Origin: Candidatus Latescibacterota bacterium
Lineage (GTDB): Bacteria; Latescibacterota; UBA2968
Assembly: GCA_022822565.1 (NCBI GenBank)
Contig: JAJEAX010000412.1
Location: 1 to 33,493 of the forward strand
DNA: 33,493 nt
Reading direction: 5' to 3'
Part shown: piece after piece, positions 8,664 to 27,138 of the stretch
Layout: the number at the start of each line of letters is the position of its first letter
How positions within the stretch are numbered: position 1 is the stretch's first letter
The notes under the pieces: generated by a model
Databases searched by the model: none
What the model saw: only the letters and a program-made list of their open reading frames with translations
What the model was told of the DNA's origin: nothing
Program-made: the position numbers and the translations under genes

Positions 8664-8763
8664 ATCAGGTATAGATGTAAGGATAGAATCTTGAAAAGCC
8701 CAAAATCCTGAACACGCGCAGTACAACGTCAGTCATCCTGACCCTGAACGTGGAGAAAAGAAA

Positions 8764-11142
8764 ATGGGCGAACCACTAAAAGTATTTATTACTTATTCGC
8801 ATGAGGATACAGACTCAAAGGACAAATTGAGACAGTGCCTTGCTGTAATGGAACAACAAGGCCTGATAACGATTTGGCACGATAACGAAATCCTCCCGGG
8901 TGACAAGTGGTATAAAAAAATTTCCAAAAATCTCAACGATTCGGACATCCTGCTCTACATCGTCTCCGCTTCGAGTCTTGCCTCTAAAAACTGCAATAAG
9001 GAATTGGCAGATGCATTAAGCGGAGAGATAAGGATCATCCCTATTATCCTTGAAGACTGTGATTGGCAAAATCATCAACTCAGTGATGTCCAGGCTCTAC
9101 CTGATCAAGGCAAGCCTATTAACGAATGGCAACCTGAGAGCAAAGGCTGGCAAAATGTGGTAGTAGGTCTCCAAAAAGTCGTTGAAATAATGCGTCCTAA
9201 TGTATCTGATGATGTAAAAGAAACATTACCTGAATGGGTGTTTCAACAGGGTAATTTTTTGATGATGTTAGGGCAAAGCGACAAGGCAATAGAAGCCTAC
9301 TCACATGCTATTGAACTAAATCCCAATAATACCATTGCCTATTACAATCGTGGCATTGCTTACGGTGACAAAGGTGCACATGACCATGCTATCTCAAACT
9401 ATAGCAAGGCGATAGATTTGCAACCAGATTACACCGATGCCTATTACAATCGCGGAAATACTTATAGCGACAAAGGCGTATATAACCGTGCCATTACAGA
9501 TTACAACAAGGCGATAGAACTTAACCCAGATAATGCCATGGCCTATTGCAATCGCGGCATTGCTTACAACTGCAAAGGCGCATATAACCGTGCCATCGCA
9601 GACTACAACAAGGCGATAGAACTGAATCCAGAGCTTGCCGAATCCTATAATAATCGCGGCATTGCTTACGGTAGCAAAGGCGCGTATGACCGTGCCATCG
9701 CAGACTTCAGTAAGTTAATAGACCTGAACCCAGAGTTTGCCTTAGCCTATCACAATCGCGGTAATACTTACCACAATAAAGGCGCGTATGACCGTGCCAT
9801 CGCAGACTTCAGTAAGTCAATAGACCTGAACCCAGAGTTTGCCTTAGCCTATCACAATCGCGGTATGTGTTGGCTACACTTGCAAAATTGGCAAGAAGCC
9901 AGATCAGATCTGACAGTTGCCAAGAGCATAGGGGAGGATATTATCGCGGCATTTCGCAACGATTACAAAAATGTTGAGGCATTTGAACGCAGACATGGTT
10001 TGCAGTTGCCAGCAGATATTGCGGCGATGCTGACGCAACGGCGACGGAGCCGTTTTCCCAAGATACAAAAAGACTTGATACAACAATCCTCTCCACTCAA
10101 CCTTTCCTCACAAAAGAAAGAAATTTTAAGTGCTAATGTCACGCTCCCTAAATCGCCTGATGTAGTGAATTTGCTCGAGGAACTTCGCGACACAGGAATA
10201 CCGTTAGAGCAATATGTCGCAATGCCATCTCATTTCGGTATCAAGACAGGTATGGACGATGCGTTTGTGGTAGATGGAGAGCTACGAGATAAGCTCATCG
10301 CGGATCACTCTTCATCCGCTGACATTTTGAAGCCATTTTTGCACGGACGGGATATAAAACGCTGGCAGGTAGATGCACAGGATTTGTGGTTGATATTTGC
10401 CTACCACGGAATAGAGATAGACGCTTATCCAGCAATTCTGAAACACATAAAAAAATACAGGGATTCCCTGAGTAAAAGGACGGGGAAACAGAAATGGTAC
10501 GAGCTACAGGCAGTCCCTGGTGATTCCGAATATTTTACGCAACCAAAGCTGGTCTGTCCAAACCGCTATAACCACCAAACTTTTGCTGTAGATACAGATG
10601 GTCTTTACTGTGGAAATACCTGCTATCTTATCTCGACTGAGGAAACATGGTTATGCGGCATCCTCAATTCCAGCGTTGTGGAGTGGTTTTATTCACAAGT
10701 GTCAGACCAATTAACAGCCGATGAACTCCGCGCACTCAGTGGTTATATCCAGCAGGTCCCTATCCCCAATGTCACCTCAACGCAAAAGGCATTGATCGGC
10801 AAAATCGTCAATTACCTCATCTATCTCCAGAAACAGCCAACGACAAATAGCAAAGATTTGGCACATGCCCGCGACTATATGATGCTCAAATATTTTGAGC
10901 GGATCATTGACGGATTGGTTTATGAGTGCTATCTGCCCGAGACACTTCATCAAGGTGACAAATATTTCTTCAAACCGCTGTTAGACGAACACTTGCCGCA
11001 ACCTGACGAGATCTCGGGTAATAAAATGTCCGTATTCCGGGGTATCTTCGAGCACCTGTATGAAAGAACACATTCAGTCCGAAAGAATCTTTTCTTTCTC
11101 GATAGCGTAAAACCAGTCCGCATCATTGAGGGCAAGTGGTGA
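8764..11142 (+). CDS. TIR - seven TPRs - TaqI/Eco57I-type DNA specificity domain protein
   Basis: A 792-residue three-part protein. Residues 4-140 are a bacterial TIR domain: VFITYSHED, WHDNEILPGDKWYKKI, and SASSLASKNCNKEL, whose Glu80 is where TIR NADases have their catalytic Glu. Residues about 157-392 are seven 34-residue TPRs. Residues about 460-792 match the TaqI-like C-terminal specificity domain of Eco57I/PglX-type methylases: GIKTGMDDAFVVD (492 on), FLHGRDIKRW (525-534), LVCPNRYN, GNTCYLIS, CGILNSSVVEWF, then RKNLFFLDSVKPVRIIEGKW at the end. There is no methylase NPPY/SAM motif and no nuclease motif. Inferred role: a defence sensor in which a DNA-recognition domain controls NAD+ cleavage by TIR. 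GGAG lies 8 nt ahead of the ATG. It overlaps the following ATPase gene by 4 nt. Base composition is more AT-rich than its neighbours, suggesting transfer. Confidence 0.88.
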   Translation: MGEPLKVFITYSHEDTDSKDKLRQCLAVMEQQGLITIWHDNEILPGDKWYKKISKNLNDSDILLYIVSASSLASKNCNKELADALSGEIRIIPIILEDCDWQNHQLSDVQALPDQGKPINEWQPESKGWQNVVVGLQKVVEIMRPNVSDDVKETLPEWVFQQGNFLMMLGQSDKAIEAYSHAIELNPNNTIAYYNRGIAYGDKGAHDHAISNYSKAIDLQPDYTDAYYNRGNTYSDKGVYNRAITDYNKAIELNPDNAMAYCNRGIAYNCKGAYNRAIADYNKAIELNPELAESYNNRGIAYGSKGAYDRAIADFSKLIDLNPEFALAYHNRGNTYHNKGAYDRAIADFSKSIDLNPEFALAYHNRGMCWLHLQNWQEARSDLTVAKSIGEDIIAAFRNDYKNVEAFERRHGLQLPADIAAMLTQRRRSRFPKIQKDLIQQSSPLNLSSQKKEILSANVTLPKSPDVVNLLEELRDTGIPLEQYVAMPSHFGIKTGMDDAFVVDGELRDKLIADHSSSADILKPFLHGRDIKRWQVDAQDLWLIFAYHGIEIDAYPAILKHIKKYRDSLSKRTGKQKWYELQAVPGDSEYFTQPKLVCPNRYNHQTFAVDTDGLYCGNTCYLISTEETWLCGILNSSVVEWFYSQVSDQLTADELRALSGYIQQVPIPNVTSTQKALIGKIVNYLIYLQKQPTTNSKDLAHARDYMMLKYFERIIDGLVYECYLPETLHQGDKYFFKPLLDEHLPQPDEISGNKMSVFRGIFEHLYERTHSVRKNLFFLDSVKPVRIIEGKW
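9679..9864 (+). repeat. Recent 102-bp tandem duplication inside the TPR array
   Basis: Segments 9679-9762 and 9781-9864 are the same over 84 nt except one base (T at 9716, C at 9818), with a 102-bp period that is exactly one TPR of 34 codons. Earlier TPR units are similar but more diverged. Confidence 0.85.
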
Positions 11143-12545
11143 GAATTACCAAAATAAAAATAAAAAATTTCAGAGCCTTTTATGGGCGGCCATATCAACT
11201 CAATCTGCATAGGGCTGGAAAAAATCTGCTAATCTACGGCGAAAATGGAAGTGGAAAATCATCGCTGTATCTCGCGTTAGAATGCTTTCTTGAATCGAGT
11301 GAGGATGATTCCTATCAATTTGAAAACTATCAAAACATCTTTATTGCCGATGCTGGCTACATCAAACTACATCTCCGCGCTGACCGACGGTCAAATGAAC
11401 AAACCTACGAATGGTCACAGAGCGTTAAAGAGACAAATGATCCTCTGTTTATTGAAGCATCAAAGGCAAATGGTTTCCTCGACTATAAGGCACTCTTAGA
11501 GACACACTATGTCCATCGAGAAAGTGGGATTGTAAACGTTTTCGATTTGCTGGTTAAGAATCTCCTGGCAAATACTGTCAGTGCTCTGACAGGCCGAAGC
11601 CTTGCCGACGATTGGGAAGACATTCAGCCACCATTTCCACGCCGAAACGCGACAAATCAAATTGCAATTCTTGAAGAACAGATAGAGAATTTCAACCTCG
11701 AATTAGCAGACAGATTAACAGAATTGCGAACGAAGGCATCCGAAATTCTCGAAAAATTTGGGTACGATGTTAAGGTCGAGTTCGACTTTCAGGGTATCAC
11801 ATATAACCGCGACAACAAGATGCTTGATGGTGAACAGATACTCTTGAAGGTCAAGTTCTTCGACAGAGACATCCCTTTGCATCACCGCTTCCTGAATGAA
11901 GCAAAATTATCCGCAATTGCTATTGCAATCTACTTTTCGTCAATACTGGTTCAGCCAGAAAGCGATCTGAAAATTCTGGCATTGGATGATGTGCTAATCG
12001 GCCTGGACATGTCAAATCGCCTACCTGTAATCGACATTTTAGAAGAATACTTCTCAGATTATCAGATATTCTTCCTGACCTATGATCGCACCTGGTATGA
12101 AATTGTCAGACAACGGACGGAAGAAAGCAAATGGAAATATGCTGAATTCTACTTCAAGAAAACTCCAGAAAACGAAATTCCGATCTATGAAGAAGATCGA
12201 CCGTATCTTGCAAAAGCGAAGGAGTATTTTGATAACAACGACTATAAAGCCTGTGCAATTTACATTCGCACCGCTTTTGAAGAGGCAATCAAGAATTTTT
12301 GCGATAAAAAGAGGCTTCCTGTCCGCTACTCCGAAGATCCCAAAAAATTGACAAGTGAAGATTTCTGGACAGCTATAAAAAATGAAGCCTTTTTACAAAA
12401 CTCTCTCATTAACGAGATTGAACTGTACCGCAAATTTATCCTGAACCCGCTAAGTCATGCTACCATTGTCAATATCATCAAAAAAGAAATTTCCGGGGCA
12501 ATAGACGCAGTGGAAAACCTCGAACAGGAATTAAAGAAGTTATGA
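11139..12545 (+). CDS. RecF/SbcC-like AAA ATPase with C-terminal helical domain
   Basis: A 468-residue ATPase read from the GTG at 11139, which overlaps the previous stop as GTGA and lies 6 nt after GAGGG; a GTG at 11136 is too close to that site. It opens with RITKIKIKNFRAFYG as in RecF/SbcC-like ATPases. Walker A is GENGSGKSS (34-42). A short coiled coil lies at about 185-225. LNEAKLSAIAIAIYF stands for the signature motif, and LALDDVLIGLD (about 280-290) is Walker B plus D-loop. Residues about 345-468 are a separate all-helical domain (AKEYFDNNDYKACAIYIRT; LNPLSH at 435-440) that recalls HEPN-like or abortive-infection domains, though the Arg-His spacing is not canonical. There is no zinc hook, so it is not RloC. 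It probably senses infection or drives the TIR partner. Confidence 0.85.
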   Translation: MRITKIKIKNFRAFYGRPYQLNLHRAGKNLLIYGENGSGKSSLYLALECFLESSEDDSYQFENYQNIFIADAGYIKLHLRADRRSNEQTYEWSQSVKETNDPLFIEASKANGFLDYKALLETHYVHRESGIVNVFDLLVKNLLANTVSALTGRSLADDWEDIQPPFPRRNATNQIAILEEQIENFNLELADRLTELRTKASEILEKFGYDVKVEFDFQGITYNRDNKMLDGEQILLKVKFFDRDIPLHHRFLNEAKLSAIAIAIYFSSILVQPESDLKILALDDVLIGLDMSNRLPVIDILEEYFSDYQIFFLTYDRTWYEIVRQRTEESKWKYAEFYFKKTPENEIPIYEEDRPYLAKAKEYFDNNDYKACAIYIRTAFEEAIKNFCDKKRLPVRYSEDPKKLTSEDFWTAIKNEAFLQNSLINEIELYRKFILNPLSHATIVNIIKKEISGAIDAVENLEQELKKL

Positions 12546-12597
12546 AAATGGAATGCCTTTGAAGCCAGGGTCGCAAGCTATTTAAGCGAAAAAATTA

Positions 12598-12628
12598 AAA
12601 ACCCCACAAGAACTTCTTGTAGGGTTTT
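12598..12628. terminator. Strong bidirectional hairpin terminator
   Basis: AAAACCCCACAAGAA and TTCTTGTAGGGTTTT form a 15-bp stem (one G-T type mismatch) around a single C, flanked by A and T tracts. It lies between the convergent ATPase gene and the sugar isomerase gene and can serve both. Confidence 0.85.
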
Positions 12629-25128: not shown

Positions 25129-25725
25129 TCACAGATTTCTCAACCGATTTAGAAGTACCTCGGCATGTGGACATGCTGCTTCGACAAGGGCAGGGTCAAT
25201 TTGCGCCAGCAAATCGAATGAGACCTTGCCCTTGGAATAGCGTTTGGAGCAGGAGGCGGTGGCTCGTCTAAGTACATCATCGACTGTTGATTTGGGCACA
25301 CTCTCTAAGTTGGACCATTGCTTGAGTACGTTCTGCCTAAACCTCGTGCCAAAGTACTTTCGCAACGCAACACGATCAGCTAAGAACCAGGTCTCCATAA
25401 TCTGAACCATCAGAAATGCCTGATCGTCGCCTGCGCCGGGAGGCTTATGCCAACCATCGCGAGCGTGCAAATGCTGCCAGACCGAGTGCCTCCGATCAAC
25501 CCGATCCTCACTATCGACAAGCAAAAGAGAGACCGTGCCGGGACGACCTACCTCAACGGCTGTGGCAAATCGGTCAAAGGTCTGTCGGCGTGTGCCTCCT
25601 CGTACTATCTTTGTCCTGCTGCCAACACCCGCGGATTCGAAAAATTCGTTCCAGCCCTCACGGAAACGCGCACCGAGTTCTCTACCTTCTCCGCCACCTT
25701 CAATATATAGCGTCGCCGTCACCAT
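25129..25725 (-). CDS. TOPRIM-like (DUF4276-like) partner of the ATPase
   Basis: A 198-residue protein that begins VTATLYIEGGGEGREL and has LLLVDSEDRVD at about 80-90, giving the Glu and the DxED positions of a TOPRIM-type fold as in OLD-family and DUF4276 proteins. FLMVQIMETWFLAD and LLNRLRNL match the DUF4276 layout in my reading. In defence pairs of this kind (PARIS- or AbiL-like) the TOPRIM protein is the nuclease effector held by the ATPase. The ATG at 25725 overlaps the ATPase stop by 7 nt, so the two are coupled. Family assignment is by eye. Confidence 0.78.
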   Translation of the reverse strand: MVTATLYIEGGGEGRELGARFREGWNEFFESAGVGSRTKIVRGGTRRQTFDRFATAVEVGRPGTVSLLLVDSEDRVDRRHSVWQHLHARDGWHKPPGAGDDQAFLMVQIMETWFLADRVALRKYFGTRFRQNVLKQWSNLESVPKSTVDDVLRRATASCSKRYSKGKVSFDLLAQIDPALVEAACPHAEVLLNRLRNL

Positions 25726-26927
25726 CGATTTCCGCCCAACTCGCCTGAAGTCCAAAGATCGCCAAGTCTGTATTTTTCTAACCACTTTGACAAATCTTTC
25801 TTATCGAGACGGCGCATTTCCGTCTGCGCATCGTGTTTCTCGCAGACTACGACGCTCTCCGGCTTATCAGTCAACGTATCCACAAGCACATCGGAATGAG
25901 TCGTAACGATCACTTGACTGTGCTTTGATGCTTCACACAACAAGTCACTCAACGTGGGCAGCAAATCAGGGTGTAGCCCCAATTCTGGTTCCTCAATACA
26001 GATTAGAGACGGTGGCTCGGGATGCAATAAAACCGCCAACAAACTCAAGTAACGCAGTGTTCCATCCGAGAGGCGGGTGGCAGGAATTGAGCGGTCGCCT
26101 TCTTCTTCGAGAAATAACGAGACCGTACCGCTCGTTACAGGACAATTCACATCGACTATGCCATCGAATAGCTTACCCAATGCATTCAGTAGCCGCCTTT
26201 TGTGGGGACCACGCAGTTGGGATAGCACGAGCGGCAGATTCTCAGCACCCTCATCCAGGAAATCGCTATGAGCGTGTGCGTTGCAAGGTTGGCGAAAATT
26301 TGCGCCAGGTCCGAACGACCAGTTTCGATAGAGGCGAATACGCTTGTATTGTCGATTTAGATACCAAAGTGCATAATTTTCTATAGTGGCAGAGTGAGAA
26401 AGCAGGGACTCAGTCGGTTGGAATGCGAGCGGAAACTCGACAACACCTGGTCGGCGCTTGACCTTGAGCTTCTCTGGTTCCAACAGTGTCAGTGCTTTAG
26501 TATACGCCATCGCTAATGACTCTTGCTCGTCTTGAGAGGGACGATAGTAGGACTGCCCATAGCTATCTTTGGAATGCACTTCCGTGGGTTCGACTTGTTC
26601 ATTAGCTATCACAGGATGCCCAACATGCTCGGTGAGAGTCAACAAATGCCGCAGCATGTCGCCCATCGAATAATTAACCATGGCCTCCAGAGTAATCGAA
26701 TGCGACGCCTCTGGCCCCTTCCACAACCACTCACGGATACCGCCCAGGCGCGAGATAGGTTCCTCGATACCGCGCGGTGCGGCGCGGAACAACGAAATCG
26801 CCTCCAGAAAGTTGGACTTGCCCGAACCGTTCGGACCGATCAGGACGTTCAATGGTCCCATCGGCAAATCAATCCCCTGCGGACCAAAGGACAAAATTCC
26901 CGAAAATTTCAACCTGTGAAATAACAT
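25719..26927 (-). CDS. AAA_21-type ABC-like ATPase, defence pair
   Basis: A 402-residue ATPase of the OLD/RecF-like AAA_21 type. Walker A is IGPNGSGKSN (30-39); the signature is RLSDGTLRYLSLLAVLL; Walker B is LICIEEPELGLHP; the H-loop is VIVTTHSDVLVD. No long coiled coil. The ATG at 26927 follows AAGGA with an 8-nt spacing, and it starts the family sequence MLFHRLKFSGILSFG; an upstream start at 27005 adds an unlikely hydrophobic tail. It leads the operon with the TOPRIM-like gene and is in the same window as the TIR cassette, suggesting that this region tolerates defence genes. Confidence 0.88.
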   Translation of the reverse strand: MLFHRLKFSGILSFGPQGIDLPMGPLNVLIGPNGSGKSNFLEAISLFRAAPRGIEEPISRLGGIREWLWKGPEASHSITLEAMVNYSMGDMLRHLLTLTEHVGHPVIANEQVEPTEVHSKDSYGQSYYRPSQDEQESLAMAYTKALTLLEPEKLKVKRRPGVVEFPLAFQPTESLLSHSATIENYALWYLNRQYKRIRLYRNWSFGPGANFRQPCNAHAHSDFLDEGAENLPLVLSQLRGPHKRRLLNALGKLFDGIVDVNCPVTSGTVSLFLEEEGDRSIPATRLSDGTLRYLSLLAVLLHPEPPSLICIEEPELGLHPDLLPTLSDLLCEASKHSQVIVTTHSDVLVDTLTDKPESVVVCEKHDAQTEMRRLDKKDLSKWLEKYRLGDLWTSGELGGNRW

Positions 26928-27138
26928 ACCTATTCCTTGGCCAGTGTGCCCGTACACAAAAACTAAATTCTTGAACAAAGAAACGAATTTGTTATGAAAA
27001 ATCAATCGGATATTTTCAAACCGCCGCTCTGTCGCGTGTCCAATCGGCTATCCTTTTCATTTTTTAACGCGATGTGTGACTTCAAAATGGTCACAGAATA
27101 ATGCCGACAAACAGAGACAAGAAAGTCAAAACCACTGG

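What the first reader, a model, noticed from the sequence alone, without database searches (positions are those of the whole stretch)
8764..12545. Two-gene cassette: TIR-TPR-TaqI_C protein plus RecF/SbcC-like ATPase
The first protein has a TIR domain with the NADase Glu80, seven TPRs, and a C-terminal domain that reads like the target-recognition part of Eco57I/TaqI/PglX methylases, yet no methylase or nuclease motif. The second, overlapping by 4 nt, is a RecF/SbcC-like ATPase. I know TIR-TPR defence proteins and TaqI_C-containing modification enzymes as separate families, and I do not know this fusion. A DNA specificity domain placed on a TIR suggests that recognition of foreign or unmodified DNA, with the ATPase, triggers NAD+ depletion. 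The cassette is AT-richer than its neighbours and sits between housekeeping genes.
Basis: partly seen in the sequence, partly recalled or inferred. Interest (0 to 1): 0.92.

Follow-up and report, generated by a model that had tools for sequence, protein, structure and literature searches.

The report
TIR effector fused to restriction-enzyme DNA reader
A bacterium of a sponge-symbiont type carries an inserted two-gene cassette that joins a predicted NAD-destroying (TIR) domain to the DNA-reading half of a restriction enzyme and pairs it with a Rad50-like ATPase; relatives swap the TIR for other killing modules, so it looks like an undescribed modular anti-phage system built on a restriction-modification core.

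Summary
ORF1 (8764-11142) is TIR (E80 present) + 7 TPRs + a TaqI_C target-recognition domain (TRD), without methylase motifs; ORF2 is a Rad50/SMC-type ATPase overlapping by 4 nt. The pair is a ~3.9-kb insertion: in nine of ten same-genus genomes the two flanking genes lie only 57-170 bp apart.

The fusion belongs to a family. In 22 genomes all 30 proteins ending in this TRD plus a conserved ~80-aa tail have the ATPase gene (one a remnant) beside them; none of 37 tail-less TaqI_C matches does. The N-terminal module is swapped: TIR, FRG, HNH-like, TPR only with separate effector genes, none, or a complete Eco57I methylase (at least 13 changes on the ATPase tree). Methylase forms sit with a PLD(HKD)-SNF2 helicase, so the cassette looks like a restriction-type system whose methylase half was replaced by suicide effectors.

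Most likely mechanism: TRD + ATPase engage invading DNA, the TIR is switched on, NAD+ is consumed. Anatomy and pairing are shown; DNA binding, activation and defence are inferred. Sensing of unmethylated DNA is not supported. It works like Lamassu/ABC-3C but fails Lamassu's membership tests.

The parts
8664..12597 (+). inserted cassette between a succinyl-CoA-ligase-like gene and the shared terminator; absent from 9 of 10 same-genus genomes
   Evidence: flanks align at 89-97% identity and lie 57-170 bp apart in relatives
8752..8755 (+). GGAG ribosome-binding site of ORF1
   Evidence: sequence
8764..11142 (+). ORF1: TIR-TPR-TaqI_C-tail protein, 792 aa
8764..9198 (+). TIR domain (TIR_2; ThsB-like)
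   Evidence: Pfam TIR_2 E 4.6e-18; PADLOC ThsB 7.3e-27
9001..9003 (+). codon of predicted catalytic Glu80 (CNKEL)
   Evidence: invariant in 11 family TIR domains
9244..9963 (+). TPR array (7 repeats)
9964..10143 (+). post-TPR linker/cap, also found on stand-alone TPR proteins of the same genome
10225..10899 (+). target-recognition domain (TaqI_C), residues 488-712
   Evidence: Pfam TaqI_C; profile match to M.BseCI 332-573, E 1.6e-17; Foldseek to CamA and M.BseCI, E down to 3.7e-8
10900..11139 (+). C-terminal helical tail, residues 713-792, found only on ATPase-paired proteins
11139..12545 (+). ORF2: Rad50/SMC-head ABC ATPase, 468 aa, no long coiled coil
11238..11261 (+). Walker A (GENGSGKS) of ORF2
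   Evidence: core residues invariant in 25-26 homologues
11973..11990 (+). Walker B-like ILALDD: the usual catalytic Glu is Asp in every homologue
12598..12628 (.). terminator-like hairpin, counterpart of the hairpin that fills the empty site in relatives

Best explanation
A horizontally acquired, two-gene anti-invader module. ORF1 carries a target-recognition domain inherited from a type IIG/Eco57I-like methylase, with a tail that docks on the Rad50-like ATPase ORF2. The TRD and the ATPase (as a dimer) scan and clamp invading DNA; engagement frees or clusters the TIR-TPR part, whose TIR consumes NAD+ and stops the infected cell. The effector is exchangeable (TIR, FRG, HNH-like, or TPR partners of separate effectors) on a constant TRD-tail + ATPase core. 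Shown: domain content, tail-ATPase linkage, module exchange, TRD type exchange, insertion with empty sites in relatives. Inferred: DNA binding, tail-ATPase contact, NADase activity, phage defence.
For: TRD homologous to the TRDs of M.BseCI and CamA, solved on DNA, by profile and by fold. All 30 tail-bearing proteins have the ATPase adjacent (one a remnant) against 0 of 37 tail-less ones, Fisher p 1e-19. The tail alone finds only the ATPase-paired protein among 72,556 plasmids, while the whole TaqI_C half finds 64 records. At least 13 changes of N-terminal module on the ATPase tree. TRD types are exchanged against a constant tail and ATPase: L033 against L051, ATPase 77%, tail 80%, TRD core 39-48%; the TRD data reject placing L033 with its ATPase neighbours, p-AU 0.005. 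TIR and FRG are both NAD-related effectors and E80 is invariant. Patchy distribution: 4 of 64 phylum genomes, empty site in 9 of 10 congeners. Methylase-bearing forms with an HKD-SNF2 helicase point to restriction-modification descent.
Against: No experiment. How self DNA is spared is unexplained: there is no methylase at this locus. Type-A TRDs are more conserved across loci than the ATPase, unlike the fast diversification usual for specificity domains under phage pressure. The TRD model is only moderately confident (mean pLDDT 74.7, weakest in loops of the recognition part). The ATPase has Asp in place of the catalytic Glu, so hydrolysis may be slow or absent. No complex was modelled.
Confidence: 0.5

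Rival explanations
1. The TRD is only a docking scaffold: sequence-specific DNA recognition has been lost, and the ATPase senses DNA ends or replication structures (Lamassu-like) and switches the TIR.
For: Rad50/SMC-head fold; best PADLOC match of the ATPase is LmuB; type-A TRDs are conserved at 62-91% across very different effectors.
Against: Discrete TRD types exchanged within a constant tail and ATPase look like specificity alleles; a scaffold alone would not need the whole TRD fold, and the tail already offers a dock.
Confidence: 0.28
2. Restriction-like self/non-self discrimination: a methylase elsewhere in the genome modifies the TRD's site, and unmethylated phage DNA triggers the TIR.
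For: Relatives carry an Eco57I methylase fused to the TRD, or a methylase gene upstream (L029, L039, L041, L043, L045, L046, L050); the own genome has an Eco57I-TaqI_C methylase at a contig end.
Against: TRDs of neighbouring methylases are only 25-33% identical to the effector TRD and do not co-vary with it; the own-genome candidate is 32% identical. Many loci, the window's included, have no methylase.
Confidence: 0.14
3. A regulated cell-death or stress switch of symbiont lineages, not anti-phage.
For: Mostly found in Poribacteria and Latescibacteria MAGs, lineages rich in TPR proteins.
Against: Patchy, inserted, module-swapping distribution; relatives on plasmids and on virus-derived contigs, the latter with restriction-type partners.
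Confidence: 0.06

Closest known systems
Lamassu / ABC-3C (LmuA-LmuB-LmuC; DdmABC)
   Same: SMC/Rad50-type ABC ATPase paired with a protein that has an exchangeable N-terminal effector (TIR included) and a conserved C-terminal docking part (PMC10586767)
   Different: C-terminal part is a restriction-type TRD plus tail, no LmuA match; no LmuC gene; ATPase lacks a long coiled coil
Type IIG / Eco57I-type restriction-modification enzymes and BREX PglX
   Same: TaqI_C target-recognition domain at the C-terminus; a family member (L034) has the complete methylase
   Different: methylase replaced by TIR-TPR; ~80-aa ATPase-linked tail; ABC ATPase partner
DndD/CxC ABC ATPase + DndE cores
   Same: ABC ATPase with a sequence-specific DNA-binding partner that has a C-terminal helical extension, to which other enzymes are recruited (PMC10853773)
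   Different: partner is a TRD, not ribbon-helix-helix; the effector is fused to it; no CxC hook region (no long coiled coil)
BREX-related Type-2 BR systems and DISARM (HKD or SNF2 helicase + adenine methylase)
   Same: the longer relatives have an HKD-SNF2 helicase and an Eco57I methylase
   Different: Rad50-like ABC ATPase in place of DUF499 or DrmB; the window form lacks helicase and methylase
Thoeris ThsB and other bacterial TIR effectors
   Same: TIR domain with the catalytic Glu (PADLOC ThsB 7e-27)
   Different: no ThsA; the TIR sits on a DNA-recognition protein

Membership tests
Lamassu | LmuB: SMC-like ATPase with long coiled coil | tested here: not met
   468 aa, one ~36-residue helix between the lobes in the model; LmuB profile matches only part (1.8e-11)
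Lamassu | LmuA effector protein | tested here: not met
   no LmuA model among the 22 PADLOC hits of ORF1
Lamassu | LmuC middle component (absent in some systems) | tested here: not met
   two genes only, overlapping by 4 nt
Type IIG / Eco57I restriction-modification | adenine methylase domain and motifs | tested here: not met
   no Eco57I or N6_Mtase hit, no motif IV or I
Type IIG / Eco57I restriction-modification | TaqI_C target-recognition domain | tested here: met
   Pfam 8e-16; M.BseCI 1.6e-17; CamA fold 3.7e-8
Thoeris | ThsB TIR | tested here: met
   PADLOC ThsB 7.3e-27 over residues 7-143
Thoeris | ThsA partner | tested here: not met
   partner is an ABC ATPase
BREX | PglZ, BrxC/PglY, BrxB neighbours | tested here: not met
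   flanks of this locus are metabolic genes
NAD+-consuming TIR effector | catalytic Glu | tested here: met
   E80 invariant in 11 sequences
NAD+-consuming TIR effector | NADase activity | not testable with these tools
   needs biochemistry
ABC ATPase (Rad50/SMC clade) | Walker A, signature motif, Walker B with catalytic Glu | tested here: inconclusive
   Walker A perfect; signature region reads LNEA[KR]LS in nearly all; Walker B is DD, not DE, in all homologues

The most novel reading that the evidence does not exclude
A previously undescribed hybrid class of immunity: a restriction enzyme's target-recognition domain, detached from its methylase and coupled by a dedicated tail to a Rad50-like ATPase, triggers exchangeable suicide effectors (TIR, FRG, HNH-like and others) on reading specific sequences in invading DNA, so that restriction-type sequence recognition drives abortive infection without methylation.
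Probability: 0.4. Interest if true: 0.9.

Novelty: new variant of a known kind. Interest (0 to 1): 0.8.

Why it matters
It links two large branches of bacterial immunity that are usually treated apart, restriction-modification (DNA sequence recognition) and NAD-depleting abortive infection, through one conserved core (TRD + tail + Rad50-like ATPase) with exchangeable effectors. If true, it shows how a restriction system can be turned into a suicide switch, raises a sharp question of how self DNA is spared without methylation, and gives a clean sequence marker (the ~80-aa tail next to this ATPase) for finding more such systems.

Tried and rejected
Mis-assembly: rejected (same architecture in other genomes, single-contig chromosomes among them). 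Decayed methylase or pseudogene: rejected (intact ORFs, invariant E80 and Walker A). Effector TRD as a copy of the neighbouring methylase's TRD: rejected on identity (25-33%). Methylase or HKD helicase of this system elsewhere in the own genome: only one Eco57I-TaqI_C methylase cut by a contig end, other Eco57I methylases without TaqI_C, and a generic helicase stretch. HEPN-type RNase at the ATPase C-terminus: only a sub-threshold DUF4145 match, not claimed. Phages: no match to the ATPase in 50,697 phage records, but five virus-derived contigs hold relatives, four with an adjacent methylase, three of those with the HKD-SNF2 helicase in the held stretch. Literature: no paper in the library was found to describe a TIR-TRD fusion; the 2020 survey of ABC ATPases (10.1093/nar/gkaa726) is not held, so an earlier mention of the ATPase clade cannot be excluded.

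Full report
OBSERVATION. ORF1 (8764-11142, 792 aa) and ORF2 (start GTG at 11139, end 12545, 468 aa; GTGA overlap of 4 nt) are intact. Pfam finds TIR_2 (4.6e-18), seven TPRs (4.7e-59) and TaqI_C (8e-16, residues 523-667) in ORF1, and SMC_N/AAA_23 in ORF2. E80 of the TIR is invariant in all 11 family TIRs aligned; no methylase motif is present. GC is 0.43 against 0.50-0.52 around it.

INSERTION. In all ten same-genus genomes the succinyl-CoA-ligase-like gene on the left is found; in nine of them the right-hand isomerase gene follows after only 57-170 bp, which hold little but a terminator hairpin. The cassette (8664 to about 12597) lies between that gene's stop and the equivalent hairpin (12598-12628). 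In 64 genomes of the phylum only four have a full-length match to the ATPase. This is an accessory, laterally acquired unit.

WHAT THE C-TERMINAL HALF IS. A profile of the half (A4) matches the C-terminal TRD of M.BseCI (residues 332-573, 1.6e-17). The predicted structure (pLDDT 74.7) matches CamA, M.BseCI and MmeI (best 3.7e-8), all of them solved with DNA. The sequence match ends near residue 712; the last ~80 residues are an extra helical tail modelled with high confidence.

PAIRING. ATPase relatives were collected from genomes (28 loci), plasmids and virus-derived contigs. In 22 genomes every one of the 30 tail-bearing TaqI_C proteins is followed by the ATPase gene (one is a remnant, one lies 884 bp away behind small genes), and none of 37 tail-less TaqI_C matches is (Fisher p 1e-19). 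The genomes were chosen because they hold the ATPase, but the contrast between tail and no tail within them does not depend on that choice. Among plasmids the TaqI_C half finds 64 records, the tail alone only the one with the ATPase. I infer that the tail docks on the ATPase.

MODULE EXCHANGE. The N-terminal part varies: TIR (window, L027, L028, L029, L037, L117-L120), FRG (L030, L039, L043, L045, L115), HNH-like (L051, below the Pfam cut-off), TPR only with a separate upstream TIR-TPR (L032, L046), FRG-TPR (L036, L038, L047), NERD-UvrD (L033, L035, L036) or methylase gene (L041, L046, L050), the complete Eco57I methylase (L034 with a TIR gene downstream, L042, L049, L052, L122, L124), or nothing (cyanobacteria: L011, L044, L048). 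On the ATPase tree at least 13 changes of module are needed. FRG belongs to the ART superfamily and may be a NADase (PMC9503650), so the two commonest effectors are both predicted NAD+ consumers.

TRD EXCHANGE. TRDs fall into discrete types. L033 and L051 share 77% in the ATPase and 80% in the tail but 39-48% in the TRD core. The ATPase tree puts L033 with the type-B set (100/99); the TRD data reject that placement (p-AU 0.005). This is the pattern of swapped specificity modules, which argues that the TRD still reads something. Against it, type-A TRDs are very conserved across loci (62-91%).

DESCENT. Methylase-bearing relatives sit in operons with a PLD(HKD)-SNF2 helicase (L034, L042, L049, L052, L123, L124, L125). 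The helicase of L034, L123 and L124 matches PADLOC model C3a139 HKD+Snf2 at about 1e-122 to 1e-124. L029 holds helicase, methylase, TIR-TPR-TRD-tail and ATPase in one row and so links the full and the reduced forms. L034, with the full methylase, branches inside the window's own ATPase clade (five rows, 96/96). The simplest reading is a restriction-modification-type system whose methylase half was replaced by TPR-borne suicide effectors; the tree cannot give the direction by itself.

ATPASE. The model (pLDDT 81.5) matches SMC1 and Rad50 heads (1e-11); a profile matches Rad50 (3.5e-12). There is one ~36-residue helix between the lobes and no long coiled coil. Walker B reads ILALDD: Asp where most ABC ATPases have the catalytic Glu, in all homologues. 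LmuB of Lamassu is likewise described as putatively defective in ATP hydrolysis (PMC10586767).

MECHANISM AND RIVALS. Most likely (0.5) TRD and ATPase together engage invading DNA and switch on the TIR. The chief rival (0.28) is that the TRD only docks and the ATPase senses DNA ends or structures. Sensing of unmethylated sites (0.14) is weakened because there is no methylase here and neighbouring methylases' TRDs do not match. How self DNA is spared is the main open point.

NOVELTY. It works like Lamassu/ABC-3C (exchangeable effector + SMC-like ATPase) but fails the defining features tested, and uses a restriction-type TRD in place of the LmuA docking part. DndD-DndE is a second analogue. I call it a new variant of a known kind. 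Literature coverage is partial: the 2020 survey of ABC ATPases is not held.

Noticed in passing
window 25129-27005, minus strand: A second candidate defence pair: AAA_21 ATPase (HEC-01A, PADLOC 1.2e-137) overlapping a 218-aa partner (HEC-01B, 5.9e-66).
   Followed up: partly
L034:2279-12636; L123:816-10621; L124; L125; L049: Apparent full parental system: PLD(HKD)-SNF2 helicase + Eco57I methylase with TRD + Rad50-like ATPase, with add-ons such as a TIR gene (L034) or a DUF4062 protein that matches Argonaute-associated models (L052).
   Followed up: partly
L118 (8618-11215, minus strand): Intact TIR-TPR-TRD-tail gene whose ATPase is reduced to a 55-residue remnant: a natural loss of the partner.
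   Followed up: partly
L012-L015 (Nostoc and Calothrix plasmids): Related TaqI_C methylase + HTH regulator + HKD-type helicase operons without the ABC ATPase.
   Followed up: partly
G000 C229 and C125 (L002, L005): Stand-alone TPR proteins with the same post-TPR cap as ORF1, so TPR + cap is a building block shared in this lineage.
   Followed up: partly
window 11973-11990: The ABC ATPase family has Asp-Asp at Walker B and an LNEA[KR]LS signature region, unlike canonical ABC ATPases.
   Followed up: no
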